Positions 12,989 through 63,178 of a stretch of DNA of 64,000 nucleotides are shown here, piece by piece. The notes beneath the pieces were generated by a model. That model did no database searches and was not told the origin of the DNA. It saw only the letters and a list, made by a program, of their open reading frames with translations. The stretch's first letter is position 1, and every line of letters starts with the position of its first letter. This DNA comes from Candidatus Saccharimonadota bacterium (GTDB taxonomy: Bacteria; Patescibacteriota; Saccharimonadia; Saccharimonadales; Saccharimonadaceae), in contig JAFUEB010000004.1 of NCBI GenBank assembly GCA_017464135.1, positions 62,001 to 126,000 on the forward strand. Direction: 5' to 3'. The translations under genes and the position numbers were made by a program.

Positions 12989-13006
12989 TCTATAACACCG
13001 ATTAAA

Positions 13007-27296: not shown

Positions 27297-28340
27297 TTAG
27301 GCTTCGGCCTTCAATTCACGTTCGTGCAAGGTTAATTCATGGATTAAATCATCGATGTCGCCATCCATGACAGCTGGAATGTTGCTTCTGGAATAATGAA
27401 TGCGGTGGTCGGTCACACGATCCTGTGGGAAGTTGTAGGTGCGAATCTTTTCTGAGCGGTCACCGGTACCGATAAGAGATTTGCGGGCTTCCGATGCGTT
27501 CTTGATTTCTTCTTCTTTTTTACGCTCTAAGAGCCTCGAGCGAAGCACATTCATGGCCTTGATACGGTTCTGCTGCTGAGAGCGTTCGTCTTGCATGGCA
27601 ACAACTAATCCGGTTGGTAGGTGTGTGATGCGGACGGCTGAATCGGTCGTATTAACGCCCTGACCGCCATGACCACCGGAGCGGTAGATATCAATGCGCA
27701 GGTCTTCTGGTTTGATTTCTAAATCTTGTTCGGAGGCTTCCGGAAGTACGGCCACAGTGACAGTAGAAGTATGAATGCGGCCTTGCGATTCGGTCACTGG
27801 AACACGTTGTACGCGATGAACACCTCCTTCAAATTTGAGCTTGCCGTAGGCTTCATCGCCAGAAATCTTAAAGATGACTTCCTTCATACCACCGGCTTCA
27901 TTCTCATTTTGAGACATCAGCTCAGCACGTAAGCCGTGGCTCTCGGCATATTTCACATACATACGATAGAGCTCGCCAGCAAAAAGGGAAGCTTCATCGC
28001 CACCAGCACCGGCACGGATTTCAATAATAGCCGGCTTGTCATCCTCTGGGTCACGCGGAATAGTCAGTTCTTCAAATTCGGCCTTGGCCTTCTCGATTTC
28101 TTCCTTAAGGTTCTTGATATCTTCTCTTGCGATTTCGCCAAGTTCAGGATCATTTACGAGTGATTCGGCTTCTTCCAAATTCGCACTCATTTGGGTGATT
28201 TTAGCATCTAAATCGACAATTTCTCGGAGCAAGCTGGCGCGCTTGCTTTTGGTGGCAAAATCAGGAGAATTATAAGCATCAGGTTTCCCAAGAAAGTCCT
28301 CTATCTCTTTTAATTCATCTTTATATTTATCAATATCCAT
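27297..28340 (-). CDS. prfA: Peptide chain release factor 1
   Basis: 347 residues. It has the GGQ motif ([17 protein letters not shown]) and the RF1-type downstream segment [14 protein letters not shown]. It ends translation at UAA and UAG. The mRNA is probably leaderless: TATAAT ends 6 nt before the ATG. Its -10 overlaps that of tRNA-Val on the other strand. Confidence 0.95.
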
Positions 28341-28342
28341 GT

Positions 28343-28352
28343 TATAATTATA
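28343..28352. promoter_or_regulatory. Overlapping divergent -10 boxes (prfA and tRNA-Val)
   Basis: TATAAT on the plus strand (28343-28348) and TATAAT on the minus strand (28347-28352) share two bases. Only one polymerase can occupy the site at a time. Confidence 0.6.
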
Positions 28353-28362
28353 GCATGTTTTT

Positions 28363-28439
28363 GGATCTTTAGCTCAGTTGGCTAGAGCGTACGATTCACA
28401 TTCGTAAGGTCACTGGTTCGAGCCCAGTAAGATCCACCA
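28363..28439 (+). tRNA. tRNA-Val (anticodon CAC)
   Basis: Acceptor GGATCTT/AAGATCC, D-arm AGCTCAGTTGGCTAGAGC, anticodon stem TACGA/TCGTA with loop TTCACAT, T-arm with GGTTCGAGCC, encoded ACCA. It is the last clearly chromosomal gene before the mobile element. Confidence 0.95.
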
Positions 28440-28476
28440 CAAACATGAGCAATATTGATGTAGATTGCTCGGAACA

Positions 28477-28501
28477 AAACCCCTGTTTTTACAGGGGTTT
28501 T
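28477..28501 (+). terminator. Terminator downstream of tRNA-Val
   Basis: 11-bp stem AAAACCCCTGT/ACAGGGGTTTT with a TTT loop. Confidence 0.8.
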
Positions 28502-28596
28502 GTCTTGCCCATGCCAAAACGCATCGGAAAGACGCTGTTTCTCATTAAAATATCAATCCTATAGAAAACAGCCAAATGACACATTTTCATCTGTTT

Positions 28597-28624
28597 TATA
28601 CGATAAGGCCGTTATATACGATAA
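28597..28624. repeat. Two TATACGATAA direct repeats, candidate att half-sites
   Basis: TATACGATAA at 28597-28606 and 28615-28624, 18 bp apart, in the 220-bp non-coding gap between tRNA-Val and the recombinase genes. This is where an attachment site of the adjacent serine recombinases would be expected; no matching site was found at the right end. Confidence 0.35.
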
Positions 28625-28647
28625 CAATCACCTCTGTGATATTGGAA

Positions 28648-28671
28648 AAGCCTGCAGAATCCTGCAGGCTT
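28648..28671 (-). terminator. Terminator of the recombinase operon
   Basis: 10-bp perfect stem AAGCCTGCAG/CTGCAGGCTT, loop AATC, with a short T-run on the minus strand. Confidence 0.6.
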
Positions 28672-28721
28672 ATTGCGTTGTTGTAATGTTCTTACGGCAG
28701 TTACGTCGCCGTACCACGTTC

Positions 28722-30344
28722 TTATTGCACTTCTGCCAGATGAATAGTTTCTTCACAACCATTTCGGAGGCAGAAGACAATGGTCTTGTCTGGCATGATT
28801 ATGACATGGTCTACAAGTGCATGCCAACTCGGAATATCAAACTTTTCTACGATTGAGTTCAGGCTCTTGAGTCCTGTAAGAAAGATCCGGACATTTTCAC
28901 GTCGAGCCAGGGTATCTGAGATTTGTTGCTTGATAGAGCCAATCATCGCCTTCTTCTCTTCAATCCTGTCATTAAGCTCATTAAACTGCGCTGTATAGTT
29001 TTCCTGATTCTGCGCATGGTGGGCGTTGTCCTGTATCAGTCTTTCGATCTGCTCGATAAGCTCTGCGAGCTCATCGTTCAAGACGTTCATCCTCTCATCC
29101 AGAACATTTGTGTTGCCTATTAGCGGAAGTATGTCGCGTTCATAATCCTCAATAAAGTCTTGCCTTTTTTGCAATAATCGGTTTTCGATAACGATAAATG
29201 CCCGTTCAAGCTCTTCATCTTTAATGCGTGGAGTGCTGCAAACACTCTCGTTATTATACCTATCATCACAAAGCCAGACTTCTTCGCGGTTTGGTCTGTT
29301 CGAGTTCCAAACTTTGTGGCCATATGTGCCGCCACAGTCACCACAGATGATTTTGCCGGTAAATGGGCTGTCGTAATAGCGACCACCTCGAGACGACCTG
29401 CGCGCCAGTTCTTTTTGAACCAATTCGAAGGTCTCAGGTGAAACTATGGCATCATGGGAATCATGAACATACCATTGCTTTCGTTCGCCACGATTGATTT
29501 TCACCTGTTTAGTGAGGAAATCATCTACATAGGTCTTTTGGAGCCGAGCATCGCCTTTGTACTTTTCGTTCGTGAGGATACGACGTATTCCGTCTTTCGT
29601 CCATTTATTGCCCTTTAGAGTCGTAATACCGTTCGCAGTCAACTCGCTTGCTATCTGGTTAAGGGTCAACCCCTCCAAATAACGTCTATAGATGTTCCGC
29701 ACGATTTCAGCCTCTTCGGGTACAATCTTTGGAAGCCCATCTTCGCCTTTTTCATAGCCAAGAAAGGTTTTATACGACACGTATACCTTCCCGGCTTCCA
29801 TACTGCGCTGTTTGCCCCAACGGACGTTCTCCGAAATAGAGCGGCTTTCTTCCTGCGCGATAGAGCTTAGCATCGTGAAGACCAGTTCGGCGGTTTTGTC
29901 CATCGAGCTGATGTTCTCCTTCTCGAAGTAGACCTCCACACCCTTGGCCTTTAACTCACGTGTCACGGTGAGAGAATCGACGGTGTTGCGAGAGAAACGG
30001 GAGATGGATTTTGTCAGGATAAGATCGATTTTACCAGCTTTGGCGTCATCAATCATTCTGTTAAATCCACTGCGGTTCTTATAACTGGTGCCAGAGATTC
30101 CTTCATCTGCATAGATGCCTACGAATTCCCAATCCGGTTTGCCCTTAATATAGGTAGTGTAATACTCAATCTGGGCATCATAACTGTTTTGTTGGGCATC
30201 CTGTTCGGTAGAAACTCTGGCATATGCAGCAACTCGTTTCTTCCTTGGGGCAGTAAAACAGTATGCTTTGCTTTCGCTATTATCCGGGTCGAATACTACA
30301 ACTGTCTCCCTTCGATGGGTGTTAGTCGGTGCTTTCAGAGCCAT
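28722..30344 (-). CDS. Large serine recombinase (second of a pair)
   Basis: 540 residues. The N-terminal resolvase domain has YARVSTEQ with the catalytic Ser, then ISGTSYKNRSGFNRM, LTKSISRFSRN and EESRSISENVRWG. It is followed by a Recombinase domain, a zinc ribbon (CGDCGG ... CDD...C) and a coiled coil. It integrates or excises DNA at att sites. ATG at 30344 is set by AAAGGAGAAG. It overlaps the upstream recombinase by 23 bp. Paired large serine recombinases are typical of Firmicutes integrative elements. Confidence 0.93.
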   Translation of the reverse strand: MALKAPTNTHRRETVVVFDPDNSESKAYCFTAPRKKRVAAYARVSTEQDAQQNSYDAQIEYYTTYIKGKPDWEFVGIYADEGISGTSYKNRSGFNRMIDDAKAGKIDLILTKSISRFSRNTVDSLTVTRELKAKGVEVYFEKENISSMDKTAELVFTMLSSIAQEESRSISENVRWGKQRSMEAGKVYVSYKTFLGYEKGEDGLPKIVPEEAEIVRNIYRRYLEGLTLNQIASELTANGITTLKGNKWTKDGIRRILTNEKYKGDARLQKTYVDDFLTKQVKINRGERKQWYVHDSHDAIVSPETFELVQKELARRSSRGGRYYDSPFTGKIICGDCGGTYGHKVWNSNRPNREEVWLCDDRYNNESVCSTPRIKDEELERAFIVIENRLLQKRQDFIEDYERDILPLIGNTNVLDERMNVLNDELAELIEQIERLIQDNAHHAQNQENYTAQFNELNDRIEEKKAMIGSIKQQISDTLARRENVRIFLTGLKSLNSIVEKFDIPSWHALVDHVIIMPDKTIVFCLRNGCEETIHLAEVQ

Positions 30345-36597: not shown

Positions 36598-38676
36598 ATG
36601 GCAAAAAGCTACTCAGATTATCAGCCTATCATAGATGATTTCCGCGACGATGCTTATGCGGATGCGGTGGATCGCTTATACAAAATGGCTGGTTTTACCC
36701 CGCCTGTGATTGATAAAAAAACAGACAATAAAACAGAGTGCGCAAAAGCTTTTTTAATCTGGCTTGCGATTTCTGCGTTTGGAGCTTCATCGTCGTCTGA
36801 TATAGCGCTGGGCGAAATGGCGCTCCTTGAAGGCTACTACAGCGGATTAGGAATGCAGGAGCGCAGAGTCAAATTCCTTATTGAGAGTAATTATCACACC
36901 AAGGGCAACCCTGATGGTGTAGAAAATAAGGATTTGCCGTATGATGTTCTTAGAGAAAAAGCCAAGCAATTCAACAAGACCGATACTCCAGTCTTTGAAG
37001 AAATGATTGGATTTTTCTTGACCAAGATAAAGGACAAGCCTGCTTTTTATGAGGACGCATGCGAGAAATATCTCGCAGTGCCAGCCGATGGACATAAAAT
37101 CCGGCAGGCGAAGCTGCCCGCTCCTTCATATGCAGTAAAGTATGAAAAGCCTATCAAATATCTCCCACTGCTTCCTAATTTGGATTTTGTTGGGCGTGAG
37201 GATTATCTTTCCGCTCTTAGTCGTGCGTTTATCGAAAGTGACAAGCGGTGCGTTGTTGCTCTTCAGGGTATGGATGGGATTGGGAAGACGGAGATTGCCT
37301 TACAATATGTGCATCGCCACATTGAGGAATACAGCACCATAATTTGGTTCGATGCAACGAGCACAGATACCTTAGTAACTGATTGCCAGAGGTTCCTACA
37401 AGCATACAAGCCGGATATGCCTTTGGATGCTGACGATACCGAGCAGATTGCCCTTGCTTTCTGTCAATTTGTTGAACAGCGATATAAGACTCTCTTGGTT
37501 TTTGACAATGCAGATTTTTTGCAGCGCATTCCCGGTGAAACACAGAACGCTTCTTACTTTCTCAGAAAATTCATTCCGGCTGGTAACGTCCACGCCATTA
37601 TTACGACTCACTGCGAAGGGAGCCTGCCGGGAGCCAGACCACTTGAAGTGTATCTGCCAGATTCGGAGACTGCTCTGGAGTTATTGACGAGAAAGGCCGA
37701 GAGAGAAGCAGACGAATATGCCAGCATTCTCGCTGAAAAGCTTGGCTATCTTCCGCTCGGCATTGAATACGCTGGTGCGTATATCCGAGAGATGGGCATC
37801 TCCTGTAAAGAATATCTCGATAAATGGGGCCGCGTTGGAGCAACCATTTTCGACCAGAATGACAGCATCGCCACCATCCGAGAAGTTTTTCACATTACAC
37901 TGGAAAAAGTTAAGGATATTCCGTTCGCACTTCCTTTCCTGCAGTTTTTCTCGGAACTTGGCGTTAACAGCTTACCGCTTAAAGATTTTATTAATACGGT
38001 AACCAAGATGAGCTTTCTCGCTGTGAAAGACCTTGATAGCCATCCTATATATGAGCCCGTTGATGACGGAGCAGGTATAGAATTGCTATACCGGATTATA
38101 GAGAAAAGGCCGGACGGCATGGTAGTGCTGGAAAGTCCAGATGGAGAGCAAATCATAAAAATGGAGCAGGAAGATCCACTTATTGATTACTTATCTTCGG
38201 AGAACAACCGAGACAAGCTGTTTTTTGCACTCAGAAAATATTCGCTGGTTGATTCTAATGACAATATGGTGTGCGTACACCCTCTACTTCTTGAGATAGT
38301 ATTCGATGAACTTCATCACCAGAGCAGAATGGAGTGGCTTAGTGACCACTCCTCCGCCGGGGTTCTTTACGAGACTTATACACGTGCCGGGAAAGATCAG
38401 CGGGCGAAAGAACAATTGTTCCAGATAGTTTGTCGCGGTATTGAGCAGATGGAAAAAGACGTACAGAAAATACCCAAAGCGGCAGAAGCCGCCAGAAAGA
38501 ATGGTTTCAAGCTTTTCAACATGGATTCCACTCTGCTTGCCGCAGATTCGGTTACCGAAAAAGCGGAAGCCTATGGCGACGAAATATTGGTCAGTAGATG
38601 CAAGGAATTAAAAGCGGAGCTTGAACAGATCTTGAACGATGCAAGCGATGTGATTGTAATTACAAACGGGAATTAA
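36598..38676 (+). CDS. STAND NTPase (NB-ARC type) with unknown N-terminal domain
   Basis: 692 residues. Residues 1-185 are an unrecognised, mostly helical domain. An NB-ARC-type NTPase follows: NLDFVGRED entry motif, Walker A GMDGIGKT (about 225), Walker B TLLVFDNAD (about 300) and the LGYLPLGIEYAGAY GLPL-like motif (about 390). A winged-helix-like region and helices complete the C-terminus; there is no long TPR or WD array. STAND proteins switch on by oligomerisation after sensing a trigger, and many bacterial ones are anti-phage effectors. Position next to a type I RM system supports defence, but a regulatory role is possible. AGGGA precedes the start. Confidence 0.75.
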   Translation: MAKSYSDYQPIIDDFRDDAYADAVDRLYKMAGFTPPVIDKKTDNKTECAKAFLIWLAISAFGASSSSDIALGEMALLEGYYSGLGMQERRVKFLIESNYHTKGNPDGVENKDLPYDVLREKAKQFNKTDTPVFEEMIGFFLTKIKDKPAFYEDACEKYLAVPADGHKIRQAKLPAPSYAVKYEKPIKYLPLLPNLDFVGREDYLSALSRAFIESDKRCVVALQGMDGIGKTEIALQYVHRHIEEYSTIIWFDATSTDTLVTDCQRFLQAYKPDMPLDADDTEQIALAFCQFVEQRYKTLLVFDNADFLQRIPGETQNASYFLRKFIPAGNVHAIITTHCEGSLPGARPLEVYLPDSETALELLTRKAEREADEYASILAEKLGYLPLGIEYAGAYIREMGISCKEYLDKWGRVGATIFDQNDSIATIREVFHITLEKVKDIPFALPFLQFFSELGVNSLPLKDFINTVTKMSFLAVKDLDSHPIYEPVDDGAGIELLYRIIEKRPDGMVVLESPDGEQIIKMEQEDPLIDYLSSENNRDKLFFALRKYSLVDSNDNMVCVHPLLLEIVFDELHHQSRMEWLSDHSSAGVLYETYTRAGKDQRAKEQLFQIVCRGIEQMEKDVQKIPKAAEAARKNGFKLFNMDSTLLAADSVTEKAEAYGDEILVSRCKELKAELEQILNDASDVIVITNGN

Positions 38677-39487: not shown

Positions 39488-40270
39488 ATGAAGAAACAGT
39501 TTTTTAGCGTTGAACCTACGAATAATCAGCTAATAAATATAGAGGTAGAGAGAACACGGAATCATGCATATGAGCATAGTGCTGTAGCTTTGAACCGGTT
39601 ACAGCGGGCGTATCTGGAACTGAGGGAAGAATGGGGAATCAATTATCCGCTTACGGTGCAGGACTTGTGTCGCAAATCTGGTTACCCGGTATCGTCTTTC
39701 AGTATGAATTTCTGCGGAGGAATGAAAGGGTTCTTGTCACAATCTGAGCGGGTTGTGATTGATAGATTTACGGAGGCCGTGCGAGGCCGGGAGTACCAGA
39801 AAGGTGTATATGCCGGGTTCCAATCACTGCTTCAGCCGATAAAGTTTTCTAATTACAACACCAACCGACAGAGAGGCGTGGACATAGCCCTCAGAACCGA
39901 ATTCTGCTACAAGGTTTTTGGGCTGGATTACTGGAAGCTTGTTCTAACACCTTTATTCCCGGCCATTGACGCTTACCTCGCGAGCTCCGAACCTCGTTGG
40001 ACACGAATTACCGAAGAAGCGAAGAACCACGCCTTTGATCTTTTTGCTGAAGAGCTTCACTGGATCGTAGGGTTGCTCCTCAAAGAGCATAAGAACCAGC
40101 AAAATAGTCCCGATCCATATATCCCGCTGGATGAATATGTGAATCTATTCGGCCAGTTCATCCGGACGACGGTGCTTATCCTTTTCAGCGAGGTAAATCT
40201 GAGGGATACACGGTTTGAAAATTACTTGAGCCGAAACAGCAAGAATAACAAACCCTTGGGAACAGCGTAA
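39488..40270 (+). CDS. TetR-like regulator whose last codons lie in an hsdS recombination repeat
   Basis: 260 residues from the ATG at 39488. A TetR-like helix-turn-helix (LTVQDLCRKSGYPVSSFSMNFCGGMKGFL) is near residue 65. The start at 39383 of the longer open frame is rejected because it would cover the palindrome. The final residues (NKPLGTA and TAA) are encoded inside the 24-bp inverted repeat 40248-40271, so inversion at that repeat leaves the gene intact. Regulator of the element is a likely role. Confidence 0.5.
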   Translation: MKKQFFSVEPTNNQLINIEVERTRNHAYEHSAVALNRLQRAYLELREEWGINYPLTVQDLCRKSGYPVSSFSMNFCGGMKGFLSQSERVVIDRFTEAVRGREYQKGVYAGFQSLLQPIKFSNYNTNRQRGVDIALRTEFCYKVFGLDYWKLVLTPLFPAIDAYLASSEPRWTRITEEAKNHAFDLFAEELHWIVGLLLKEHKNQQNSPDPYIPLDEYVNLFGQFIRTTVLILFSEVNLRDTRFENYLSRNSKNNKPLGTA

Positions 40271-40271
40271 G
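40248..40271 (+). repeat. hsdS recombination repeat, inverted copy (PWEQRK repeat)
   Basis: 24 bp encoding PWEQRK in the hsdS frame. It is a perfect inverted match to 42337-42360, and its 21-bp core matches 46798-46820 and 47404-47424. Confidence 0.85.
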
Positions 40272-40787
40272 TTCTCGGATATTACATATCCGTCTGGAGA
40301 AAAGAATCGAGACAACCTTCCTTACGAGAGTTACTCGATCACGAATGAAAACGGATTTGTGCCACAGGATGAGAAGTTTGAGAACGGTGGAACGATGCGA
40401 GATGCTGACAAAAGGATGTATTACATTGTCTCTCCGCAGTCATTTGCATACAATCCGGCAAGAATCAATGTAGGCTCAATCGGATACCAAAACACCTCAA
40501 AAAACGTGATTGTAAGCTCACTTTATGAAGTTTTTAAGACTATAGAAGATGTTGACGATCGCTTTCTCTGGCACTGGTTCAAGTCGGATGATTTCCAGAA
40601 ACTCATTGTTCAGTTACAAGAGGGTGGTGTCCGTCTATACTTCTACTATGATAAGCTCTGCATGGGGACAATTGCTTTACCGTCCTTGGCCGAACAGCAT
40701 CGTATAGGTGCATATCTGGATAAACTTGACAACCTTATCACCCTTCATCAGCGTAAGCAGGGAATCATTAATTCAATCCAGCCATAG
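40250..40787 (+). pseudogene. Silent hsdS half-gene (one target-recognition domain)
   Basis: An open frame begins at NPWEQRKFSDI and runs through a full target-recognition domain to LDKLDNLITLHQRKQGIINSIQP. It has no start codon, ribosome-binding site or N-terminal half. It is oriented opposite to both intact hsdS genes and bounded by the two inverted hsdS repeats, so it is a donor cassette for DNA inversion. The 142-residue open frame from 40359 is only part of it. Confidence 0.85.
40728..40757 (+). repeat. hsdS recombination repeat, inverted copy (LITLHQRK repeat)
   Basis: 30 bp, perfect inverted match to 46312-46341 and 46915-46944, two mismatches to 41833-41862 and 42454-42483. It encodes the conserved helix start DNLITLHQRK of HsdS. 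Confidence 0.85.
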
Positions 40788-41700
40788 AACGCATTACGAT
40801 ATCAATATCCTGATTTTCCAATTCTTGAATGATATGCAGATAGGTCTTTTGGGTGGTGGTCATGCTGGCATGTCCCAACCGTCTTGCTACACTGGCGATT
40901 GATACGCCCGCGAACAGCAACAGGGAAGCATGCGTATGACGAAGCCCGTGAACCGAAATAACCGGGAGCCCCATTTTTGAACAGTAACGTTCAAGTACCC
41001 CATTAACAGTAGAATTGTAGATGTCCTGATTGTCACAAACGAAAATAGGCTTGTCTTTGGGGAGACCGCGCACCAGTTCAGAGAACTGGATGACCGTCTG
41101 CCAGTCGATTTGGATTTTACGCACTGAAGACTTGTTTTTGGTCGGAAGAAAACCGCCATTACCTTTATAATCCCACGTCTTGCTGATAGAGAGCGTTTGA
41201 TGGGCAAAATCGAAATCATCCGGCGTCAGAGCAAGCGCCTCTGAAAACCGCATACCGGTTTTAGCTACCAGAAGAATGAAATAATCCCAGTTCACGGTAT
41301 CCTTCAGGTTCAGGCCAGAGAGAAGCGTATGAAGCTCATACTGATTCAGATACTTGATTTTTTTGGGGGCAGGAGTTTTTCCTTTAATAATTGCTTTTCT
41401 CGTAGGATCGCGCTCGATGAGTCCTTCATCCACAGCATCGAGAATTGCGCCCTTGATAAGATGGTGAAAATCCATCGTAGTCTGCCGCTCATGCGTCTCG
41501 GCGTACTGGTTGATGATTTCCTGATAGTGAATCCGATCCAGATCACCGAGTTTGAGATCCGGAGCAAGCTTACACAGCCAGGAATGTGCCATGTTATATT
41601 TGCTGAGTGTTATTGGCCTGATAGCCCCTTCTTTGTAGACTTTAACCCATTCCGCATAAAAATCACAGAACAGGTCGTCTGACGACTGCTTTTTTGACAT
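40768..41700 (-). CDS. Tyrosine recombinase, probable hsdS invertase
   Basis: 310 residues, XerC/phage-integrase type: SAM-like N-terminal domain, then the catalytic residues in GMRFSEALAL (first Arg), VHGLRHTHASLLL (HxxR), RRLGHASMTTTQKTYLH (His and nucleophile Tyr). The ATG at 41700 follows GGAGG; the frame to 41733 is longer without support. It lies between the silent cassette and an hsdS gene, within the segment it would invert, a standard layout for phase-variable type I systems. Confidence 0.9.
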   Translation of the reverse strand: MSKKQSSDDLFCDFYAEWVKVYKEGAIRPITLSKYNMAHSWLCKLAPDLKLGDLDRIHYQEIINQYAETHERQTTMDFHHLIKGAILDAVDEGLIERDPTRKAIIKGKTPAPKKIKYLNQYELHTLLSGLNLKDTVNWDYFILLVAKTGMRFSEALALTPDDFDFAHQTLSISKTWDYKGNGGFLPTKNKSSVRKIQIDWQTVIQFSELVRGLPKDKPIFVCDNQDIYNSTVNGVLERYCSKMGLPVISVHGLRHTHASLLLFAGVSIASVARRLGHASMTTTQKTYLHIIQELENQDIDIVMRSMAGLN

Positions 41701-41778
41701 TTTGTATTGTCCTCCTTGCAACAAAAAATACACCGCTTCTCTTGGATCTCAAAACATGAGCAAAATGGCGGGGCTCAA

Positions 41779-43041
41779 TTATACAAGCATCTTTTGCAGC
41801 AGGGAATTCTTTAATTTTTGAAGCATTTCGTACTTACGCTGATGAAGGGTGATAAGATCGTCAATCTGGCGCAAGAAATCGCCGATCTTTTTCTGTTCTG
41901 AATATTCCGGCATGAGAAATGAGTATTCACCATACTCCTGTGCGTTTACGCCCGGTTGTCCTGAACGCTGAGAAGTGATTTGAATATACTTCTCATACTG
42001 CGATGTAAGGGTATTCTGAAATATAAACTCTGCACAGTATTCAGGTTTAATTCTCGCCCTAATAAGGAATCCTGCAAAGTATACAAGACCGTCGGTTCCC
42101 CTGTAAATAAAGGATTTCCCGACACTTGCACCTGTTCTGGCAAAGAGTACGTCTCCTTCATTAAGCTGGTAATTGCCCGCTATAGAAAGATTCGTATCAG
42201 GAGAAGTCAGATCATCCTCCTTGAAAGCACGAGAGGAATCGTCTATATCTGTGATGCGAAGATATTTATTCGTTCCATCGAATTCTTTTGCAGCCGCATT
42301 TAGACCATACTCGAATGAAGAAGCAACATCCTTCAGCTTACGCTGTTCCCAAGGGTTTGTGAAACCGGCAAAACGGATTTCCGGAACATTGCTTCCATCA
42401 CATGGAAACATTTTTTCAAGCATAGACTTTTTGATGTTTTTCAGCCGTTCATGCTTACGCCGATGAAAGGTGATAAGGTTGTCGAGATTCTCAAATATTG
42501 CTCCTAATTCATTCTGCTCTTCTAACGAAGGAGACATAAAGGTAAGCTCTTTCAGCTTTTCCTGAGACATAGTGGGAACACTGCTTCCACCTGTGATGTC
42601 TCGAACCTGCTTCATAAACGCATCGGTCCTGATGGCTAAGAATGTAAAATAGCCATCTGTTCCTTTAAGCGGCGTCAATAACGCAAACTGAGGGTTAATC
42701 GTTGCTTTTTCCTTTAGTTCCCGCACAAAACCTACTTTTCCAATAGAAGCGGTCTTAGTAAATAGAATGTCTCCAGGTTGAACTTTTATCTCTGGAGACT
42801 CTTCATATTTCATCCAAGAGATGTATTTATTATCTGTTTGAGACACATTTCCTGTTTCATCAATATCTGCGGGGCTGAAAGTAATTGCGCCATTTCCTTC
42901 TTCGACCAAGTCTGCTTGTGTATACCCTCTAAAGCCAATTCTGCCTCGCAGAGATACTGTATCTCCCAGCTCACGCTCTTCCCACTCATCAGAAAACCCT
43001 CTAAACCGTATTTCTGGAACTAAAGTTTGAGGGCCTGCCAT
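41779..43041 (-). CDS. hsdS: Type I restriction specificity subunit HsdS (distal copy)
   Basis: 420 residues with two target-recognition domains. The first begins PEIRFRGFSDEWEERELGD and ends DNLITFHRRK; the second begins PEIRFAGFTNPWEQRKL and ends DDLITLHQRK. The central repeat is nearly identical to that of the other hsdS, but both TRDs differ, so sequence specificity differs. TATAAT lies 9 nt before the ATG on this strand, so it has its own promoter. The second TRD can be swapped with the silent cassette by inversion between 40248-40271 and 42337-42360. Confidence 0.92.
   Translation of the reverse strand: MAGPQTLVPEIRFRGFSDEWEERELGDTVSLRGRIGFRGYTQADLVEEGNGAITFSPADIDETGNVSQTDNKYISWMKYEESPEIKVQPGDILFTKTASIGKVGFVRELKEKATINPQFALLTPLKGTDGYFTFLAIRTDAFMKQVRDITGGSSVPTMSQEKLKELTFMSPSLEEQNELGAIFENLDNLITFHRRKHERLKNIKKSMLEKMFPCDGSNVPEIRFAGFTNPWEQRKLKDVASSFEYGLNAAAKEFDGTNKYLRITDIDDSSRAFKEDDLTSPDTNLSIAGNYQLNEGDVLFARTGASVGKSFIYRGTDGLVYFAGFLIRARIKPEYCAEFIFQNTLTSQYEKYIQITSQRSGQPGVNAQEYGEYSFLMPEYSEQKKIGDFLRQIDDLITLHQRKYEMLQKLKNSLLQKMLV
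42337..42360 (-). repeat. hsdS recombination repeat (PWEQRK copy in distal hsdS)
   Basis: Perfect 24-bp inverted partner of 40248-40271 at the start of TRD2. Confidence 0.85.
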
Positions 43042-43050
43042 ATGCTATCA

Positions 43051-43056
43051 ATTATA
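43051..43056 (-). promoter_or_regulatory. -10 box of distal hsdS
   Basis: TATAAT on the minus strand, 9 nt before the ATG; it is embedded in a TATGCTAT/ATAGCATA inverted repeat. Confidence 0.5.
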
Positions 43057-43089
43057 GCATACAGCAAGCCCTCATTTCGTTTTTTGATC

Positions 43090-46000
43090 TTAGTCGGTGT
43101 CATGTCCACCGCTCAGGATAAATTTGCGGAGCGCGGTATCGACCTTTGCTGGTACGCGGAATGGTTTTATCGTCTGTCCTTCGATCTTTTCAAAATATGC
43201 TTTGGCGACGTCTTTGTCTACCGTAGCTTTCAGCCGATCAAAGAGGCCGAATTCATTGATGTTACCGGCGGTCACGTGCCGGTCCATGAATGTACGCAAG
43301 AAAGTCTCGTCCACGCCAATCGCGGAGGCGAACTTATGAATTCTATCATTTTGTGCTTCGGTCTGATATTGATTGATGTAATCGATGAGCGTTTTATCCT
43401 CCTCGACAATGATGTTTCCTTGCTGAACATCCGTGAGGAAAATCTTTGCATACTTCTGTTGTTCCTGTGTAAGCACAGCAAATGACTTATGGAGCTCCTT
43501 CAAAGCGGCGGTAGTCTCGACGCCGTCCTGAAGCTGTTTGAGATACTTGCGGAAGCGGGACTCCATATAATCATGATCGATCTTGCCCGTGTTGATTTCA
43601 GTCAGATGCGGATCAATCTCATAAGGAAGGTCGCCACCACCCGGTGTCGGGCCAGGCCCTGGCGCAAAGAGCTCTTTGTACCTCAGCGCAAGTGTCAGAT
43701 AAGTGGTTTCATCCAGCGCGACTTTTATCTTCTTTGTCTTTCCGCTTTCTGTATCCACCTTGTATTCGAGCTTATTCCAGGTAAAGCCTTGGATTATCGC
43801 AGATTCCAGATATGCATTAAAGACCTTGAACAGCTTTGCGAACTTGCCTCTAGCCGCTAAATCATCAGGCAGTTTCTCAAAGCCTGTGATCCCAGCGGAG
43901 GTAAACAGCGAATCAATCTCCGCGAATATTTCATTCAGCTTATCCAGATTATCGCCAAGCTTGCTTACGAATACACCATAGGTGCGCTCGCCGGAATAGA
44001 GCTTGAACGCATCCTCTACATTGCGTTTCATGGTGTGAGGCTTGCGATAGTAACGGATGATACCGAATGGCTTTTCAGCAGGATTAAACAGACGGTTGGT
44101 ACGGGAGAACGCTTGGATTAGTCCTTCGTAGCGCAGAACCTTGTCCAAATAGAGCGTGTTAACCCATTTGGAGTCAAAGCCGGTAAGCATCTGATCCACT
44201 ACGATGAGAAGATCGATCTGCTTTTCCGGATGGCTTGCAATATCTGTATATGGCTTTTTATGCGCTAAGCGGAGAGAGACATCTTTTTTGTAGGCTGCGA
44301 AGGTTGGGATAGTATATTCTACGCCGTATCTTTCGTTATAATCCTTGAGGAGTTCCAGAAGTCCGTCTTCCTTAAAAATAGCACCAGCGGTGTTATCTAC
44401 GTTCGGGTCAAACAATGGAGTGACTTTTAGTTCTGGAGCATCAGTCTTAAAGAGACGATAATACTGGATAGCCTCCGGTATACTGCTGGTAGCAAAGATA
44501 GCATGGAATTTGCCGTTGCGACTGAGCCTGATCCAGTTTGAGCGAATATCTTCGATCACGACTTTGCGGTGTTCATCGCGGTCATATTGAGCTGCAGAGA
44601 GATAATCCTCAATTCCGTGGACATATTTTCCATCGTTACCGATGTAGCCAGCCATAGGGACGATGGAGGAATCCATGTATTCATAATAAATCTTCTGTTT
44701 CTTTGGGCTTGTGAACACATCCGACACGGACTCAGCTTTAGCCTTGTCGAGAGCGACAGCTTCGCGCACGTCTTGATCCTTATAGGTCATCACCATGGTA
44801 GGATCAAAGCCGAGGACGTTTTTATCACGAATACCATCCGCGATGGAGTAACGATGAAGCTCATTGCCGAAGACATCGGTGGTGGTGTTCATCTTCTTTT
44901 TGTTCTCATCGTGGATCGGGGTGCCGGTAAAGCCGAAGAACATGGCGTTCGGGAAAGTGTTCTTGATGTTCATGATCATTTCGCCGAACGTATCACGATG
45001 GCACTCGTCCACTATAAACACCACGCGCTTGCGGTTGATAAGCTCGATATCCTTAGCCTTATAACCACCCTCCTCCATGATGCGGCTCATTTTCTGAATG
45101 GATGTGACAATAAGAGTGTTTGCCGGGTCCGGGCTTTTCAATTTTGTCACCAGAACGCCGGTATTCTCGGTGGCCTGTACAGAATCTGAATCGTCAGCGA
45201 ATCCACGGTATTCCTGCAATGACTGTGTGCCGAGCTCAATGCGGTCCATGAGAAATACGACTTTGTCCGCATCGCCAGAATTAGCGATAAGCTGCGCGGA
45301 TTTGAAGCTGGTCATGGTCTTGCCGGAGCCGGTTGTGTGCCAGATGAAGCCTCCACGCTGGCCGGGTTCGGACCATCTGCGCTTGGCCACAGCTTGGGAA
45401 ATAGCGGAGGCGGCATAGTACTGGTAGCTTCGCATGACTTTCAGGGTCGCGTCCGTGTCATCCGCAACGGTATAGAAGCCGATCATCTGATGGGCCATCG
45501 GGATAGAAAGCAGATCAGTGGCGATTTTCTCCCAATCATTGATTGGCTCGTTGTTGAAGTCTGCCCAATGGAAATAGTAATCCGAGTTGAACTTTCCGTC
45601 TGGACCGGGGTTTGCGAAATACAGCGTTTCTTCCGGCGTCATGGCAACGAAGATCTGAACGAGCGCAAACAAGCCGGTAAATACGCCCTCGTGAGAATAC
45701 TTCTCAATCTGATAGCATGCTTGGCTGATCGGAATACCGCTCTTTTTAAGCTCCACATGGATGACAGGCATGCCGTTAATCAGAAGCGTGAAATCGCCAC
45801 GACGGGAGTTCAGGAGCTTGTTTTTGGCAGGGAAAACCGGCTGCTCCGCAATCTGATAACGGCTCTGGCCACCGGCGATCTCTTGACGGTCATAGATTTT
45901 CAGACTGATTTCATGACCAAAATGCAGGGTATCTGCGGGATTGTCTCTCTTTATTGTGACGGTTTTCCCGTTAATGAAGCCGTTGAGCCGAACCGGAGTG

Positions 46001-46239
46001 CGGAGATTCTTGATCTGCTCCAGAATCTGCTGCATTTCGCCGTCGGTAAGCGGAGCATCGTTCAGACGATCAATGCTATTGTTGTTCTCAAATAAGATAT
46101 CTGCCCAGTTTTGGATGAGTTCTTTTTCGGTTTTGTAACGCAGAATCTCCGGCTGTCCGGTGGAGTGATTAACCCATCCGGCATTGGCCAGCCTCTGGAT
46201 CAAAGCGTTTTCAAATTCCTGTTCTGTATTGAATACCAT
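43090..46239 (-). CDS. hsdR: Type I restriction endonuclease subunit HsdR
   Basis: 1049 residues. The nuclease domain has GDFTLLINGMPVIHVELKKSG (D...ExK, near residue 150). SF2 motor motifs are HTTGSGKT (near 300), VDECHR (DEAH-like) and a later FSRTNRL motif VI. It cuts DNA after ATP-driven translocation when the HsdM/HsdS complex finds an unmodified site. AAAGGATAGGA precedes the start. No frameshift is seen. It lies between the two hsdS genes. Confidence 0.95.
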   Translation of the reverse strand: MVFNTEQEFENALIQRLANAGWVNHSTGQPEILRYKTEKELIQNWADILFENNNSIDRLNDAPLTDGEMQQILEQIKNLRTPVRLNGFINGKTVTIKRDNPADTLHFGHEISLKIYDRQEIAGGQSRYQIAEQPVFPAKNKLLNSRRGDFTLLINGMPVIHVELKKSGIPISQACYQIEKYSHEGVFTGLFALVQIFVAMTPEETLYFANPGPDGKFNSDYYFHWADFNNEPINDWEKIATDLLSIPMAHQMIGFYTVADDTDATLKVMRSYQYYAASAISQAVAKRRWSEPGQRGGFIWHTTGSGKTMTSFKSAQLIANSGDADKVVFLMDRIELGTQSLQEYRGFADDSDSVQATENTGVLVTKLKSPDPANTLIVTSIQKMSRIMEEGGYKAKDIELINRKRVVFIVDECHRDTFGEMIMNIKNTFPNAMFFGFTGTPIHDENKKKMNTTTDVFGNELHRYSIADGIRDKNVLGFDPTMVMTYKDQDVREAVALDKAKAESVSDVFTSPKKQKIYYEYMDSSIVPMAGYIGNDGKYVHGIEDYLSAAQYDRDEHRKVVIEDIRSNWIRLSRNGKFHAIFATSSIPEAIQYYRLFKTDAPELKVTPLFDPNVDNTAGAIFKEDGLLELLKDYNERYGVEYTIPTFAAYKKDVSLRLAHKKPYTDIASHPEKQIDLLIVVDQMLTGFDSKWVNTLYLDKVLRYEGLIQAFSRTNRLFNPAEKPFGIIRYYRKPHTMKRNVEDAFKLYSGERTYGVFVSKLGDNLDKLNEIFAEIDSLFTSAGITGFEKLPDDLAARGKFAKLFKVFNAYLESAIIQGFTWNKLEYKVDTESGKTKKIKVALDETTYLTLALRYKELFAPGPGPTPGGGDLPYEIDPHLTEINTGKIDHDYMESRFRKYLKQLQDGVETTAALKELHKSFAVLTQEQQKYAKIFLTDVQQGNIIVEEDKTLIDYINQYQTEAQNDRIHKFASAIGVDETFLRTFMDRHVTAGNINEFGLFDRLKATVDKDVAKAYFEKIEGQTIKPFRVPAKVDTALRKFILSGGHDTD

Positions 46240-46257
46240 ATAAATCCTATCCTTTTA

Positions 46258-47472
46258 TTATACAAACATCTTTTCAAGCATTGATTTCTTAATCTGTTGG
46301 AGCTTTTCATACTTACGCTGATGAAGGGTGATAAGGTTGTCGAGGTTGATCAAGACGTCGGCAATTTGCTTCTGTTCGGCTACAGTTGGAATCTGAATTT
46401 CATACTGCAACATTTCGTTAATGTTGAGCACTCTATTGCGTCCAGCACCACCTGGAGAGGCAAGCCATAGATGGTGTCGGAAGTTCTCGTCGAGAATTAT
46501 GAATTTCAGGAACTTCGGATCTAAATCCTCTGACAAAGAAAACTGCGGAAAACGGTGTGAAACAAGCTTTCCAGCGTCTTTTTCGTCAGTTACGGCAACA
46601 GCATGTTCCCATCCAAAAGTGATGTTGACGATGAATTTATCGGCTGCCACTCTATGCATCTGAGCTGTCTGTAATTCATGTCCGGCAGGCACATAGCTGT
46701 GGAATGTTCCTTTTGCATGACTGCGTATTCCAAGACGCTCATAACCATCGTGCGGAATATCTACCGGATCAGAGTAACTGGTGAACACCTCGGCTAACTT
46801 ACGCTGTTCCCAAGGGTTAGTAAAACCGGCAAAACGTATTTCCGGGACATTGCTGCCATCACGTGGAAACATTTTTTCAAGCATAGACTTTTTGACGTTT
46901 TTCAGCCGGTCATACTTACGCTGATGAAGGGTGATAAGGTTGTCGAGTTTCTTGAAATAGTCTCCAATAATATCTTGCTCATCCGAAGACGGAACCATAA
47001 ACTCCATTTTCGAGAACATGTATCCAGTAATCTGATTAATCGTGGCACCCATGTTCATCTCGACTTCTTTGTCAAATCGGGGCGTATTTAGTAAGGCATT
47101 CAAAAATGAAGGATGCTCCGAACGGATTCCCGTCATGAACGCTCCAATGACCGTATTAGGCTTAAATCCCTTTATTTCAGCGTGTTTTCCGATTAGAGCA
47201 CGCGATCCGTTTCGAACAACAACGATAATATCTCCGTCTCGAACATTTTCGGAATTAACAACTGTTGGGTCAACATAGACGTTGTCCGCATCGACAACTT
47301 CGCCGTCTTTCACGTTCGAGGATCTAAGGACAAGAGTCCCAGCTGGACGGATGTCCGCCGGTGAATATGTCAGGCCGCTGAAAAATGAAACGAATTCGTC
47401 AAGCTTACGCTGTTCCCAAGGGTTAGTAAAACCGGCGAAGCGAATCTCAGGGGTATTTGTTTTTTCAGACAT
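46258..47472 (-). CDS. hsdS: Type I restriction specificity subunit HsdS (proximal copy)
   Basis: 404 residues. Both TRDs begin with the same PEIRFAGFTNPWEQRK motif and end with LDNLITLHQRKY, so recombination repeats bracket each TRD (repeat starts at 47404 and 46798; ends at 46915 and 46312). That makes each TRD exchangeable. The ATG at 47472 follows AAGGGG from the hsdM stop region; an upstream GTG is rejected because it lies in the ribosome-binding site. Confidence 0.92.
   Translation of the reverse strand: MSEKTNTPEIRFAGFTNPWEQRKLDEFVSFFSGLTYSPADIRPAGTLVLRSSNVKDGEVVDADNVYVDPTVVNSENVRDGDIIVVVRNGSRALIGKHAEIKGFKPNTVIGAFMTGIRSEHPSFLNALLNTPRFDKEVEMNMGATINQITGYMFSKMEFMVPSSDEQDIIGDYFKKLDNLITLHQRKYDRLKNVKKSMLEKMFPRDGSNVPEIRFAGFTNPWEQRKLAEVFTSYSDPVDIPHDGYERLGIRSHAKGTFHSYVPAGHELQTAQMHRVAADKFIVNITFGWEHAVAVTDEKDAGKLVSHRFPQFSLSEDLDPKFLKFIILDENFRHHLWLASPGGAGRNRVLNINEMLQYEIQIPTVAEQKQIADVLINLDNLITLHQRKYEKLQQIKKSMLEKMFV
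46798..46820 (-). repeat. hsdS recombination repeat (PWEQRK copy before TRD2)
   Basis: 21-bp core identical to 40251-40271 (inverted). Confidence 0.8.
47404..47424 (-). repeat. hsdS recombination repeat (PWEQRK copy before TRD1)
   Basis: 21-bp core identical to 46800-46820 (direct) and inverted relative to 40251-40271. Confidence 0.8.
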
Positions 47473-47477
47473 TATTT

Positions 47478-50030
47478 TCACCCCTTAAGCAGGTTTTTGA
47501 GCTCGGCCAGCCCTTTCATATCGTATTCAGAGCCGGTAAGATTATCGAGCATCGCACTGAACTCTTTTTCTGTCTTCTCTATTTCGGATTCTAAGTCATT
47601 AAGCGTCGTGGCATATTTCTGTGAAAGCTCTGTGACTTTCTTGGAGAGCGTATCGATAACAGCGGTTGGGAGGCCGTGGAGAGAAGCGACGAGCGGGCAA
47701 ATCCATTTTTCTTCAAGGAGATCAAACACCTGTTCATCTGTAAGGTTTTCGATGGTTTCCTTGGTCTTCTGATGGAGCTTTGTGGTTTCGTCTTTAATGG
47801 TCTTTTTAAGGACCTTTTCTTCTTCGTTCATGTTGAGAATCTTTTTCAGGATGGCAAGCAGCTCCGGCTCCTCATCCTTTGCTTTTACCGCTTTTTTCAC
47901 CTCCGGCCACACGAATGCCGTCTTATCGTCGTTGACGAAATCCTTGTCTTTATCCTCTTCGGAAAGGCCATCGAGAGCTTCTTCATAAGAAGCGGTTATT
48001 TCAGCAAGCCTGTCCTCATGGGCTTTCAGAGCTGCCAGCTCGGAGCCGAGAAGTTTTTTCTGAACCAACTCAAACGGAATAATGCGGCCAATCCAGCCTT
48101 CCTGGACTTCTTCCTCTGTGCCGCCCTTCTTTTTTAGAACCATATTCGGGTCGACGGCCTTCGTCGAGGCGAAGCCATCTCTCTGGATTGTCTCAATATC
48201 GGACGAAATAACAGACCATGCTCCGTCGAGGAGCTGGTAAGCCTCATATCTATCGATGAGTGGAACAGATGCCAATCTGCCGAAAATGTTGCTGCTGATC
48301 TGTTCTTCGTTTACCGTGATTTCCATGTTGTGGAGCTTATCGATCAGTTGCTCATGCAAATAGGACTGAAAATCCTCAAATGCCGCTACGAAACCTTTGG
48401 TAAAGGCATCAATATCCCTGCTGCCTTTGATTGTGTCTGCAACACTTTCCACTGCCAAGCTGGAATACGGGGTGCCATCCGAATGGAAGAGTTCGTTTCT
48501 GAGGTTCGGGAATGCATCCCAGTAAGCATGGAGTTCGTCAATCTCGGCGTTTGGAATTCCGCCAGCCATAGTCGCGAGGATGTCCCATGATTCTGGCTTC
48601 TCAGAGGAATCAACATAGCGCGGAATGTTCAGGTTATAGTCGTTGTTACGGATCTCTTCACGAGTGACGACACGGGAGAACTTCTCAACAGATTTGCGCT
48701 GAGTAACGACATCGACAATACGCTTGATGTCCGAGGCACGGAGCTTGTTGTTCTTGCCGACTTTTTCAAAATGCTTGGAGGCGTCCACGATCAGAACATC
48801 GGTGTTGGTACGTTTCTGCTTCAACACCATAATAATAGTAGGGATGCCGGTGCCGAAGAAAATGTTTGCCGGGAGACCAATGATTGCATCTATATTGTTC
48901 TTCTCAATGAGATTACGGCGGATGTCGCCCTCCTCACCACCACGGAACAGAACGCCGTGAGGGAGAACGATAGTCATAATGCCGTCCGGCTTCAGGTGGA
49001 AAAGATCATGGAGCAGGAAAGCATAGTCTGCTTTGCTCTTTGGCGCGATGCCGTAATTTGCATAGCGAGGATCATGCTTTTTATCCTCGGTAGGCTCCCA
49101 GTGCTGTGAATACGGAGGGTTTGACACCACCGCATCGACGTATAGCGGGGCATAAACGTGCTCTTCATCGAAGAACGGCCAGTCTTCTTCCAGCGTGTCA
49201 CCGTTGCGGGTCACAATGTTATCCGGTAAAATGCCGCGCATGACCAGATTCATGCGAGTGAGGTTATATGTATTCTCTTTGAGCTCCTGCGCATAATACT
49301 TGATGTTATCCTTGCCACCCATGCGTTTTGCGGCACTCTGGCCAATATTAATGAGAAGCGAGCCGGAGCCGCTGGTCGGGTCGTATATCTCAATTTTGCT
49401 GCGGTCGCGGAGATGGTCTGCCACGATTTCGGACATGAGAAGGGATACTTCGTGCGGAGTATAGAACTCCCCGGCCTTTTTACCGGCATTTGCAGCGAAG
49501 TTGCTGATCAGATATTCGTAGATGAAGCCGAGAACGTCATAGTCCTCTTTGCCGTCCATCGGGATATCCTTGATGAGTTGGAGCAAGTTGCTGATAGCCT
49601 TGGTGCGAGCACCAGAGGTATCGCCGAGCTTGGAGAGGCCGGTGTCAAGGGTATCAAAGATGCCCGCGAAGACCTTTTTGTGCTTCGGATCGATTAGGCG
49701 GTTGAATGCAGAAAGGGCATCGGTGACATTGGAGACGTCGAAATCCTTGCCTTTCTTCAGCCAGGTCGAGAAGAGGCTGTCATAGGAGATGAAATAACCG
49801 AGCTGGCGACGGCAGTAGCTGACCGTATCCTCGTCTTCTTCGGTGAGCTCCTTTAGATCGTCCTCTTCCCAACCATCTCTACGAAGGAACTGTTCTTCCT
49901 TGTCTGATAGGAATTTATAGAAAATAAAGCCAAGAATGTAGTCTTTATACTCGTTTGCTTCAATCTTTGACCGCAATTTGTTCGCAGACTCCCAAATCTT
50001 AGAAGCAAGCTGCTGTTTGTTCATGCTCAT
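47478..50030 (-). CDS. hsdM: Type I restriction DNA-methyltransferase subunit HsdM
   Basis: 850 residues. HsdM N-terminal domain (ASKIWESANKLRSKIEANEYKDYILGFIFYK), then SAM-binding motif IYDPTSGSGSLLINIG and catalytic VVSNPPYS, giving N6-adenine methylation. The C-terminal 400 residues include a long coiled coil, longer than classic HsdM (about 520 residues). ATG at 50030 follows GGAGA. First gene of the hsdMSR operon with TATAAT at 50062-50067. Confidence 0.95.
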   Translation of the reverse strand: MSMNKQQLASKIWESANKLRSKIEANEYKDYILGFIFYKFLSDKEEQFLRRDGWEEDDLKELTEEDEDTVSYCRRQLGYFISYDSLFSTWLKKGKDFDVSNVTDALSAFNRLIDPKHKKVFAGIFDTLDTGLSKLGDTSGARTKAISNLLQLIKDIPMDGKEDYDVLGFIYEYLISNFAANAGKKAGEFYTPHEVSLLMSEIVADHLRDRSKIEIYDPTSGSGSLLINIGQSAAKRMGGKDNIKYYAQELKENTYNLTRMNLVMRGILPDNIVTRNGDTLEEDWPFFDEEHVYAPLYVDAVVSNPPYSQHWEPTEDKKHDPRYANYGIAPKSKADYAFLLHDLFHLKPDGIMTIVLPHGVLFRGGEEGDIRRNLIEKNNIDAIIGLPANIFFGTGIPTIIMVLKQKRTNTDVLIVDASKHFEKVGKNNKLRASDIKRIVDVVTQRKSVEKFSRVVTREEIRNNDYNLNIPRYVDSSEKPESWDILATMAGGIPNAEIDELHAYWDAFPNLRNELFHSDGTPYSSLAVESVADTIKGSRDIDAFTKGFVAAFEDFQSYLHEQLIDKLHNMEITVNEEQISSNIFGRLASVPLIDRYEAYQLLDGAWSVISSDIETIQRDGFASTKAVDPNMVLKKKGGTEEEVQEGWIGRIIPFELVQKKLLGSELAALKAHEDRLAEITASYEEALDGLSEEDKDKDFVNDDKTAFVWPEVKKAVKAKDEEPELLAILKKILNMNEEEKVLKKTIKDETTKLHQKTKETIENLTDEQVFDLLEEKWICPLVASLHGLPTAVIDTLSKKVTELSQKYATTLNDLESEIEKTEKEFSAMLDNLTGSEYDMKGLAELKNLLKG

Positions 50031-58772: not shown

Positions 58773-58905
58773 CATGTGTTCCGGCGATTTGAAAGACATT
58801 ATTAGACCATCATTTCCACAAAAGTCTAGTCTTTTCATACATTACGTTTGTGCTATCATGGTAGTATCTAAGGTCATATTATTAAAAAGCAACATAAGGG
58901 TCTGT

Positions 58906-60237: not shown

Positions 60238-60285
60238 ATTGTGACTCCCTTTTCCTTCGTTCCGTATGTTTCTTCCCCGTACTCG
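60041..60285 (+). repeat. DGR variable repeat (VR)
   Basis: 245 bp covering the 3' end of the FISUMP gene and 48 bp past its stop. Ungapped match to the template repeat 62541-62785 with 26 differences, all where the template has adenine. The altered window is 60067-60211; 60212-60285 is identical and should contain the site where mutagenic copying starts. Confidence 0.96.
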
Positions 60286-60300
60286 ACTCTCCGGAATAAA

Positions 60301-60329
60301 GCGCCCTTAAGCTAAAGCGCAAAGGGCGC
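60301..60329 (+). other. Hairpin downstream of VR
   Basis: 8-bp stem GCGCCCTT/AAGGGCGC with a 13-nt loop, 15 bp past the VR end and absent next to the TR. In the Bordetella phage DGR a hairpin at this position helps target recognition; same role is inferred. It could also act as a terminator. Confidence 0.6.
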
Positions 60330-60354
60330 GGAAAAGCCCTAAAGAATAATAAAA

Positions 60355-62476: not shown

Positions 62477-62540
62477 CCTTTGTGGGCTTCTCTCGCTTTA
62501 AACTTCTAGCCCAATCTCGTGAGATGCTTTTATCTTTTGC

Positions 62541-62785
62541 CGAGTACGGGGAAGAAACATACGGAACGAAGGAAAAGGGAGTCACAATCTACTTCAGTAC
62601 GCACCGTATAGCGTTCCCGTTGTTGCGGTTGTTGTTATTGGCCGGATTGACATTCGACGTATTGAGGTTCAGGTTGTACATATTCGTGTCATTGTTCCTA
62701 GTAGAAGACCAGTAGTTGCCGTTTGACCCCTGATTCGCCGGAGCGGCATTGTTGAAGTTGCCAGCGAGAGCGAAAGCAGCTCCGG
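62541..62785 (-). repeat. DGR template repeat (TR), opposite strand
   Basis: 245 bp, the template for VR. Read on the minus strand it encodes 21 Asn codons (AAC/AAT) exactly at the variable sites of the FISUMP protein. It lies 64 bp downstream of the reverse transcriptase on the opposite strand, and is not a protein-coding gene. Confidence 0.95.
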
Positions 62786-62789
62786 TGGG

Positions 62790-63120
62790 AATGATGCACG
62801 ACTGGTTTTTAGGTGTTGGCACGGCGCTAATCTTTTTGGCGCGGTATACGCATATGTAATACGCATAAACCTAAATAACAAAGTCTATGTCATTCGGTCC
62901 AAAGGATGTTTAGAATACCCCGCCCTGCCGTAACTAAGCGGGGTAGGCTGGGAGACATAAAACCAGCTAATACTCTACTTTTTAGCTTGCAAAGTACATC
63001 CTTTGTACTCGACTGAAAAGTGCTTGCGGAGCGATGAAGACTCACTATCTTGCTGTCGCTGACGCTTGCGCTATCCTCACGATTTTATTATACTCCAACA
63101 AGTCGTTGCTTGTATGGGTG
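62790..63120 (-). ncRNA. Structured non-coding region, possible TR-RNA leader
   Basis: About 330 bp without a plausible gene. It has an 8-bp hairpin TACCCCGC/GCGGGGTA (62916-62945) and an inverted repeat CAAAGGATGT/ACATCCTTTG (62900-62909, 62996-63005). As it lies upstream of TR on the minus strand, the TR RNA should start here. I could not fix a promoter. Confidence 0.4.
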
Positions 63121-63178
63121 CGATAATTATGGTACAATTCTTGTGCTTTATTATGACGTATAAAGTAGGAGAAAACGA

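What the first reader, a model, noticed from the sequence alone, without database searches (positions are those of the whole stretch)
40248..47424. hsdS shufflon: silent TRD cassette, inverted repeats and dedicated recombinase
A promoterless half hsdS on the plus strand is bounded by a 24-bp and a 30-bp repeat. Both recur in inverted orientation in the two intact hsdS genes (42337, 46312, 46798, 46915, 47404). A tyrosine recombinase lies between cassette and hsdS. Inversion of the 2.1-kb segment 40248-42360 would give distal hsdS a new C-terminal TRD. With the proximal hsdS, more combinations follow. Phase-variable type I systems are known in other phyla; one inside a mobile element in Saccharibacteria is notable.
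Basis: partly seen in the sequence, partly recalled or inferred. Interest (0 to 1): 0.7.

Follow-up and report, generated by a model that had tools for sequence, protein, structure and literature searches.

The report
Invertible restriction-specificity gene locus
A very small bacterium carries, on a mobile element, a DNA-cutting and DNA-marking defence system whose target-recognition parts can probably be swapped by flipping DNA; the device is well known in Firmicutes and was most likely borrowed from rumen Clostridia, so it is a known kind in an unusual host.

Summary
A half hsdS (one target-recognition domain, 40248-40787, +) lies opposite to hsdM-hsdS1-hsdR-hsdS2-recombinase (all -). A shared core, CAGCGTAAG, occurs eight times in the 64-kb window (0.29 expected), always at a recognition-module boundary: two on +, six on -, all in one reading frame, so inversion at matching cores rebuilds open hsdS genes. 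The tyrosine recombinase keeps all catalytic residues. Relatives sit beside hsdS genes across Firmicutes, in both orientations relative to the hsd operon, and recognition modules recur in other slots. This is a SpnIII/cod-like inverting type I R-M locus. The closest relatives are in rumen Clostridia (recombinase 92-93%, HsdR 84%). Of 393 genomes of its class only this one has the recombinase; a genus-mate carries the same element with plain hsdM-hsdS-hsdR. The novelty is mainly the host: a new member of a known kind. Two additions: the distal hsdS start codon is buried in a 20-bp hairpin shared with the rumen relative, suggesting a silent store; and a genus-mate holds an independent inverting type I locus. 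Inversion itself is not shown.

The parts
40248..40787 (+). silent half hsdS: one target-recognition domain between a 5' and a 3' core, no own start
   Evidence: PF01420 E 1.3e-8; open frame
40263..40271 (+). 5' core CAGCGTAAG, cassette
40749..40757 (+). 3' core CAGCGTAAG, cassette
40768..41733 (-). tyrosine recombinase; its 3' end overlaps the cassette tail
   Evidence: PF00589 E 5.8e-20; R162, K199, H262, R265, H288, Y298 conserved in at least 98% of 58 relatives
41779..43041 (-). distal hsdS (hsdS2), two recognition domains
   Evidence: PF01420 twice
41833..41841 (-).
42337..42345 (-). 5' core, middle of hsdS2
42454..42462 (-). degenerate 3' core CGGCGTAAG, middle of hsdS2
   Evidence: sequence
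42970..42978 (-). degenerate 5' core GAGCGTGAG, start of hsdS2
   Evidence: sequence
43028..43074 (-). hairpin burying the hsdS2 start codon; shared with L004
   Evidence: -36.2 kcal/mol for the 91-nt region, z -8.1; L004 has it with start codon paired, -31.5 kcal/mol
43090..46239 (-). hsdR
   Evidence: TIGR00348, EcoR124_C
46258..47481 (-). proximal hsdS (hsdS1), directly after hsdM
   Evidence: PF01420 twice
46312..46320 (-). 3' core, end of hsdS1
46798..46806 (-). 5' core, middle of hsdS1
46915..46923 (-). 3' core, middle of hsdS1
47404..47412 (-). 5' core, start of hsdS1
47478..50030 (-). hsdM, the only PF02384 methylase found in the held genome
   Evidence: TIGR00497
28722..31821 (-). two adjacent large serine recombinases of the carrying element, next to tRNA-Val 28363-28439
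   Evidence: PF00239, PF07508
53614..56833 (+). T4SS coupling protein and replication-relaxation protein of the carrying element
   Evidence: PF02534/PF10412 and PF13814; 71% and 49% identical genes in G169

Best explanation
This is an inverting type I restriction-modification locus. The tyrosine recombinase recognises a site around CAGCGTAAG that marks the start (GGGAACAGCGTAAG) and end (CTTCATCAGCGTAAG) of each target-recognition module. Recombination between a core of the silent + strand cassette and a matching core of a - strand hsdS inverts the DNA between them and exchanges modules in frame, changing the DNA motif that HsdM methylates and HsdR cuts. A 5' by 5' inversion followed by a 3' by 3' inversion swaps one module cleanly. 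The locus was most likely acquired by a Saccharibacteria mobile element from rumen Clostridia. Shown: anatomy, in-frame rebuilding, intact catalytic residues, family-wide association, both orientations among relatives, modules in different slots. Inferred: that this recombinase acts on these cores, that it does so in this cell, the effect on methylation, and the direction of transfer.
For: Eight cores, 0.29 expected, all in one frame; simulated inversions keep hsdM, hsdR and recombinase whole and give open hsdS genes. Catalytic R162-K199-H262-R265-H288-Y298 conserved. In 59 loci with hsdM or hsdR near, the recombinase is in the operon's direction in 45 and opposite in 14; L031 and L017, sisters in the HsdR tree (99) with recombinases 90% identical, differ in recombinase orientation. 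L004 has the same order hsdS-hsdR-hsdS-recombinase-inverted hsdS, with recombinase 92% and HsdR 84%. The second module of hsdS1 is 90% identical to a half hsdS downstream of the recombinase in L003 and to an hsdS module upstream of hsdR in L049. Full 5' core in 119 of 135 sites in recombinase loci against 4 of 25 in loci without. Listeria innocua has the textbook order with a 60% identical recombinase. Pneumococcal PsrA performs such inversions in vitro (PMC7096588).
Against: No read data; no second assembly of this species with the other orientation was found. hsdS genes without a nearby recombinase still keep CGTAAG (21 of 25 5' sites, 22 of 22 3' sites), so the conservation is not proof of a recombinase site. 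The cassette lacks the conserved C-terminal tail, so one inversion gives a shortened HsdS. The wider recombinase family also holds phage integrases.
Confidence: 0.82

Rival explanations
1. The modules are exchanged mainly by general homologous recombination between conserved hsdS segments; the recombinase plays little part.
For: Lactococcal and lactobacillal hsdS genes without a nearby recombinase keep the same segments at DNA level; one study reports pneumococcal spnIII recombination independent of all known site-specific recombinases (title of PMC6620402).
Against: The recombinase is tied to hsdS in dozens of genera with the same cassette arrangement; 24-43 bp is short for RecA-type recombination (general knowledge); the Q codon of the 5' core is kept as CAG in recombinase loci but mostly not in controls.
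Confidence: 0.12
2. Frozen relic: the system arrived by transfer and no longer inverts in this host.
For: Only one of 393 class genomes has it; the genus-mate element has a plain hsdM-hsdS-hsdR without inverted copy; two of ten core positions (both in the first half of hsdS2) are degenerate.
Against: All genes open, catalytic residues intact, eight cores perfect; recombinase 93% identical in protein but 79% in DNA to L003, which implies long purifying selection.
Confidence: 0.2
3. The recombinase is an ordinary integrase of a nested mobile unit carrying hsdS pieces, not an invertase.
For: More distant relatives are integrases of Listeria phages (about 50-52% identical).
Against: No nested element ends seen; relatives at 60-93% sit between oppositely oriented hsdS genes.
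Confidence: 0.05
4. Assembly chimera: Clostridial DNA misjoined into the Saccharibacteria genome.
For: Closest homologues of the locus are Clostridial.
Against: It lies inside a 340-kb contig, between element genes whose homologues flank a related hsd operon in genus-mate G169; contamination estimate 0.06%.
Confidence: 0.03

Closest known systems
SpnIII / SpnD39III / cod locus of Streptococcus pneumoniae with PsrA (CreX)
   Same: hsdM, hsdR, expressed hsdS, recombinase, silent inverted hsdS pieces including a 553-bp half hsdS; short inverted repeats at module boundaries; inversion swaps the recognition domain (PMC4948785, PMC7096588)
   Different: Here hsdR lies between two co-directional hsdS genes and there is one silent half cassette only; the PsrA sequence and its repeats were not available for comparison, and the recombinase looks longer (catalytic Tyr 298 against Tyr 247 in PsrA)
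Inverting type I loci of Listeria and Enterococcus faecalis (Atack et al. 2020, PMC7394358)
   Same: hsdS genes in opposite orientation around a recombinase; Listeria innocua recombinase 60% identical; the window would be caught by their criterion of a 20-bp perfect inverted repeat (30-bp perfect match)
   Different: Host phylum; gene order
Rumen Clostridia loci L004, L005 (found here)
   Same: Order hsdS-hsdR-hsdS-recombinase-inverted hsdS in L004; HsdR 81-84%, recombinase 86-92%; L004 has the same start-codon hairpin
   Different: L004 has a further hsdS piece; host Clostridia

Membership tests
Type I R-M system | hsdM, hsdS and hsdR present and intact | tested here: met
   TIGR00497, PF01420 twice in each hsdS, TIGR00348
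[quoted passage not shown]
   30-base perfect inverted match between cassette and proximal hsdS
[quoted passage not shown]
   half hsdS on + has no start codon before its module; consensus promoter scan no better than chance, so the promoter part is weakly tested
[quoted passage not shown]
[quoted passage not shown]
   no reads; no second assembly found
PsrA/CreX orthologue | sequence orthology to pneumococcal PsrA | not tested
   the PsrA sequence was not retrieved; position of the catalytic Tyr differs (298 against 247)
Phasevarion | expression of many genes changes with methylation state | not testable with these tools
   no methylome or transcriptome

The most novel reading that the evidence does not exclude
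The distal hsdS is a translationally locked module store: its start codon is buried in a 20-bp hairpin that the rumen relative keeps. Only hsdS1 is expressed, so useful switches must invert 5.6-7.1 kb between cassette and hsdS1, which also turns hsdR away from the hsdM promoter. Specificity change would then be coupled to a restriction-off, methylation-only phase, which would protect the cell from cutting its own newly unmodified DNA while it remethylates.
Probability: 0.2. Interest if true: 0.6.

Novelty: new member of a known kind. Interest (0 to 1): 0.42.

Why it matters
Inverting type I systems are known from several phyla, but I found none reported for Saccharibacteria, whose reduced genomes and epibiotic life (general knowledge) make a switching DNA barrier interesting: one clone could present several methylation patterns against phages of its niche. 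It also documents transfer of a whole switching device between rumen Clostridia and a Saccharibacteria mobile element. The related element in a genus-mate, with the same hsd family but no recombinase, makes a natural comparison of plain and switching versions. The DNA-level conservation of the module boundaries gives a handle on the recombinase site that can be tested at once.

Tried and rejected
(1) I expected the synonymous conservation of the core (118 of 127 5' sites and 76 of 99 3' sites against about 7 and 5 expected from codon usage) to be proof of a recombinase site. Controls without a recombinase keep CGTAAG too, so I downgraded it; only the full 5' core separates the groups, and the rows are related. 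(2) Own-versus-cross-locus repeat length did not separate locus-internal homogenisation from family-wide conservation: cross-locus matches are as long. (3) Viral contig searches for hsdS1 and for exact cassette and hsdS2 sequences, to find the other orientation: nothing. (4) Exact direct repeats of 11 bases or more between 28301-28760 and 62401-64000 as ends of the carrying element: none printed, so its ends are not mapped. (5) Host 16S: absent from the held genome, so taxonomy rests on order-mates. (6) Folding the start regions of other hsdS genes gives no general rule for the hairpin; only the window and L004 have an hsdS directly after hsdR with a recoverable start.

Full report
Observation. 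The window lies at 62001-126000 of a 340-kb contig of a 0.67-Mb genome. On the minus strand run hsdM (47478-50030), hsdS1 (46258-47481), hsdR (43090-46239), hsdS2 (41779-43041) and a tyrosine recombinase (40768-41733); on the plus strand a half hsdS (40248-40787) faces them, overlapping the recombinase end. They come in two kinds. The 5' kind encodes TNPWEQRK and the 3' kind LDNLITLHQRK. Both contain CAGCGTAAG, which occurs eight times in 64 kb, always at a module boundary, against 0.29 expected.

Mechanics. All eight cores share one reading frame. Simulated inversion at matching cores keeps hsdM, hsdR and the recombinase whole and rebuilds open hsdS genes. Cassette 5' core with hsdS2 middle core (2.1 kb) gives hsdS2 a new C-terminal module but with the short cassette tail (407 codons against 421). 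A second inversion at the 3' cores would restore the tail and the recombinase orientation, the net result being an exchange of one module. Inversions with hsdS1 span 5.6-7.1 kb and put hsdR on the other strand from hsdM.

Recombinase. It has all six catalytic residues (R162, K199, H262, R265, H288, Y298), conserved in at least 98% of 58 relatives. The closest are in rumen Clostridia: 93% (L003), 92% (L004), 86% (L005). Flanking genes of L003 and L004 (recG-like, coaBC-like, maf-like and others, judged by eye from the translations) look Clostridial. Protein identity of 93% with DNA identity of 79% means long purifying selection.

Family-wide pattern. In many relatives the half hsdS abuts the recombinase end at a constant distance. 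L004 has the window's order. In 59 loci with hsdM or hsdR near (the window included), the recombinase points with the operon in 45 and against it in 14. L031 and L017, sisters in the HsdR tree with 99 support and recombinases 90% identical, differ in this orientation. Recognition modules move between slots: the second hsdS1 module is 90% identical to a half hsdS downstream of the recombinase in L003 and to an hsdS module upstream of hsdR in L049. This is the natural record expected of inversion and exchange, although it is between species, not within one clone.

Control that limits the claim. hsdS genes of plasmids and viral contigs without a nearby recombinase also keep CGTAAG (21 of 25 and 22 of 22), while the full 5' core is 4 of 25 there and 119 of 135 in recombinase loci. 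Boundary conservation may therefore partly reflect general recombination. The genus-mate G169 has four perfect cores and no recombinase.

Host and element. Order-mates match the TM7905 probe exactly in 5 of 30 genomes searched, and TM7305 exactly or with two mismatches in the two checked (probe sequences from memory), consistent with Saccharibacteria; the host's own 16S is missing. The locus sits between two large serine recombinases next to tRNA-Val and a T4SS coupling protein with a replication-relaxation protein. G169 of the same genus has a related element (coupling protein 71%, serine recombinases 64-65%), with hsdM-hsdS-hsdR of the same family (HsdM 68%, HsdR 70%) but no recombinase, second hsdS or inverted copy. 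The window's HsdR groups with L004 and L005 (support 100), not with G169. The recombinase is in 1 of 393 class genomes. Transfer from rumen Clostridia is the simplest account; the direction is inferred.

Start-codon hairpin. The hsdR-hsdS2 junction folds into a 20-21-bp hairpin (-36.2 kcal/mol for 91 nt, z -8.1) with the hsdS2 ATG in the 3' arm. L004 has the hairpin with the ATG also paired (-31.5 kcal/mol); arm differences include one change on both sides, several to or from wobble pairs, and one break (read by eye). Pairing is better on the hsdS2-sense strand, with G-U pairs, than on the other, which suggests an RNA element, but the other strand has a T-rich tail and may act as a terminator. 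Two sequences are little; the reading that hsdS2 is a silent store is inference.

Comparison. By what it works like, this is a SpnIII/cod-type inverting type I system; it meets the testable criteria, including the perfect inverted repeat of at least 20 bases of PMC7394358. That paper already lists Ruminococcus species among organisms with such loci. I found no report for Saccharibacteria or the candidate phyla radiation in the held library, which lacks most subscription papers. Orthology to PsrA was not tested.

Verdict. Switching is unproven.

Noticed in passing
L108 (G200:C2:228000-246000), 5216-14165: A genus-mate has an independent, apparently inverting type I locus: hsdM, hsdS, a different tyrosine recombinase, an inverted hsdS, and a 1430-aa ORF that joins two hsdS domains to an HsdR; inverted repeats of 36 nt (94%) and 44 nt (89%).
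   Followed up: partly
window 58774-62785: Diversity-generating retroelement: variable region 60041-60245 in a Fib_succ_major gene, reverse transcriptase 61313-62476, template on the minus strand about 62581-62785; 26 of 26 mismatches are at template A.
   Followed up: yes
window 43028-43074: Hairpin burying the start codon of the distal hsdS, kept in rumen locus L004; the other strand has a T-rich tail like a terminator.
   Followed up: partly
L117 (Ligilactobacillus salivarius pLMP1046), 5457-8954: A 55% identical recombinase lies next to two GbpC/Spa adhesin genes in opposite orientation, so the family may also shuffle surface proteins.
   Followed up: no
L180/L181 (G169:C18:72000-110500): Related element with hsdM-hsdS-hsdR, hsdS carrying four perfect cores, but no recombinase or inverted copy; a Fib_succ_major gene is also present.
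   Followed up: partly
window 36598-38676 and 39491-40270: NB-ARC/STAND-type ATPase gene, and an ORF without any family match whose end lies inside the 5' repeat of the cassette; possibly further defence cargo.
   Followed up: no
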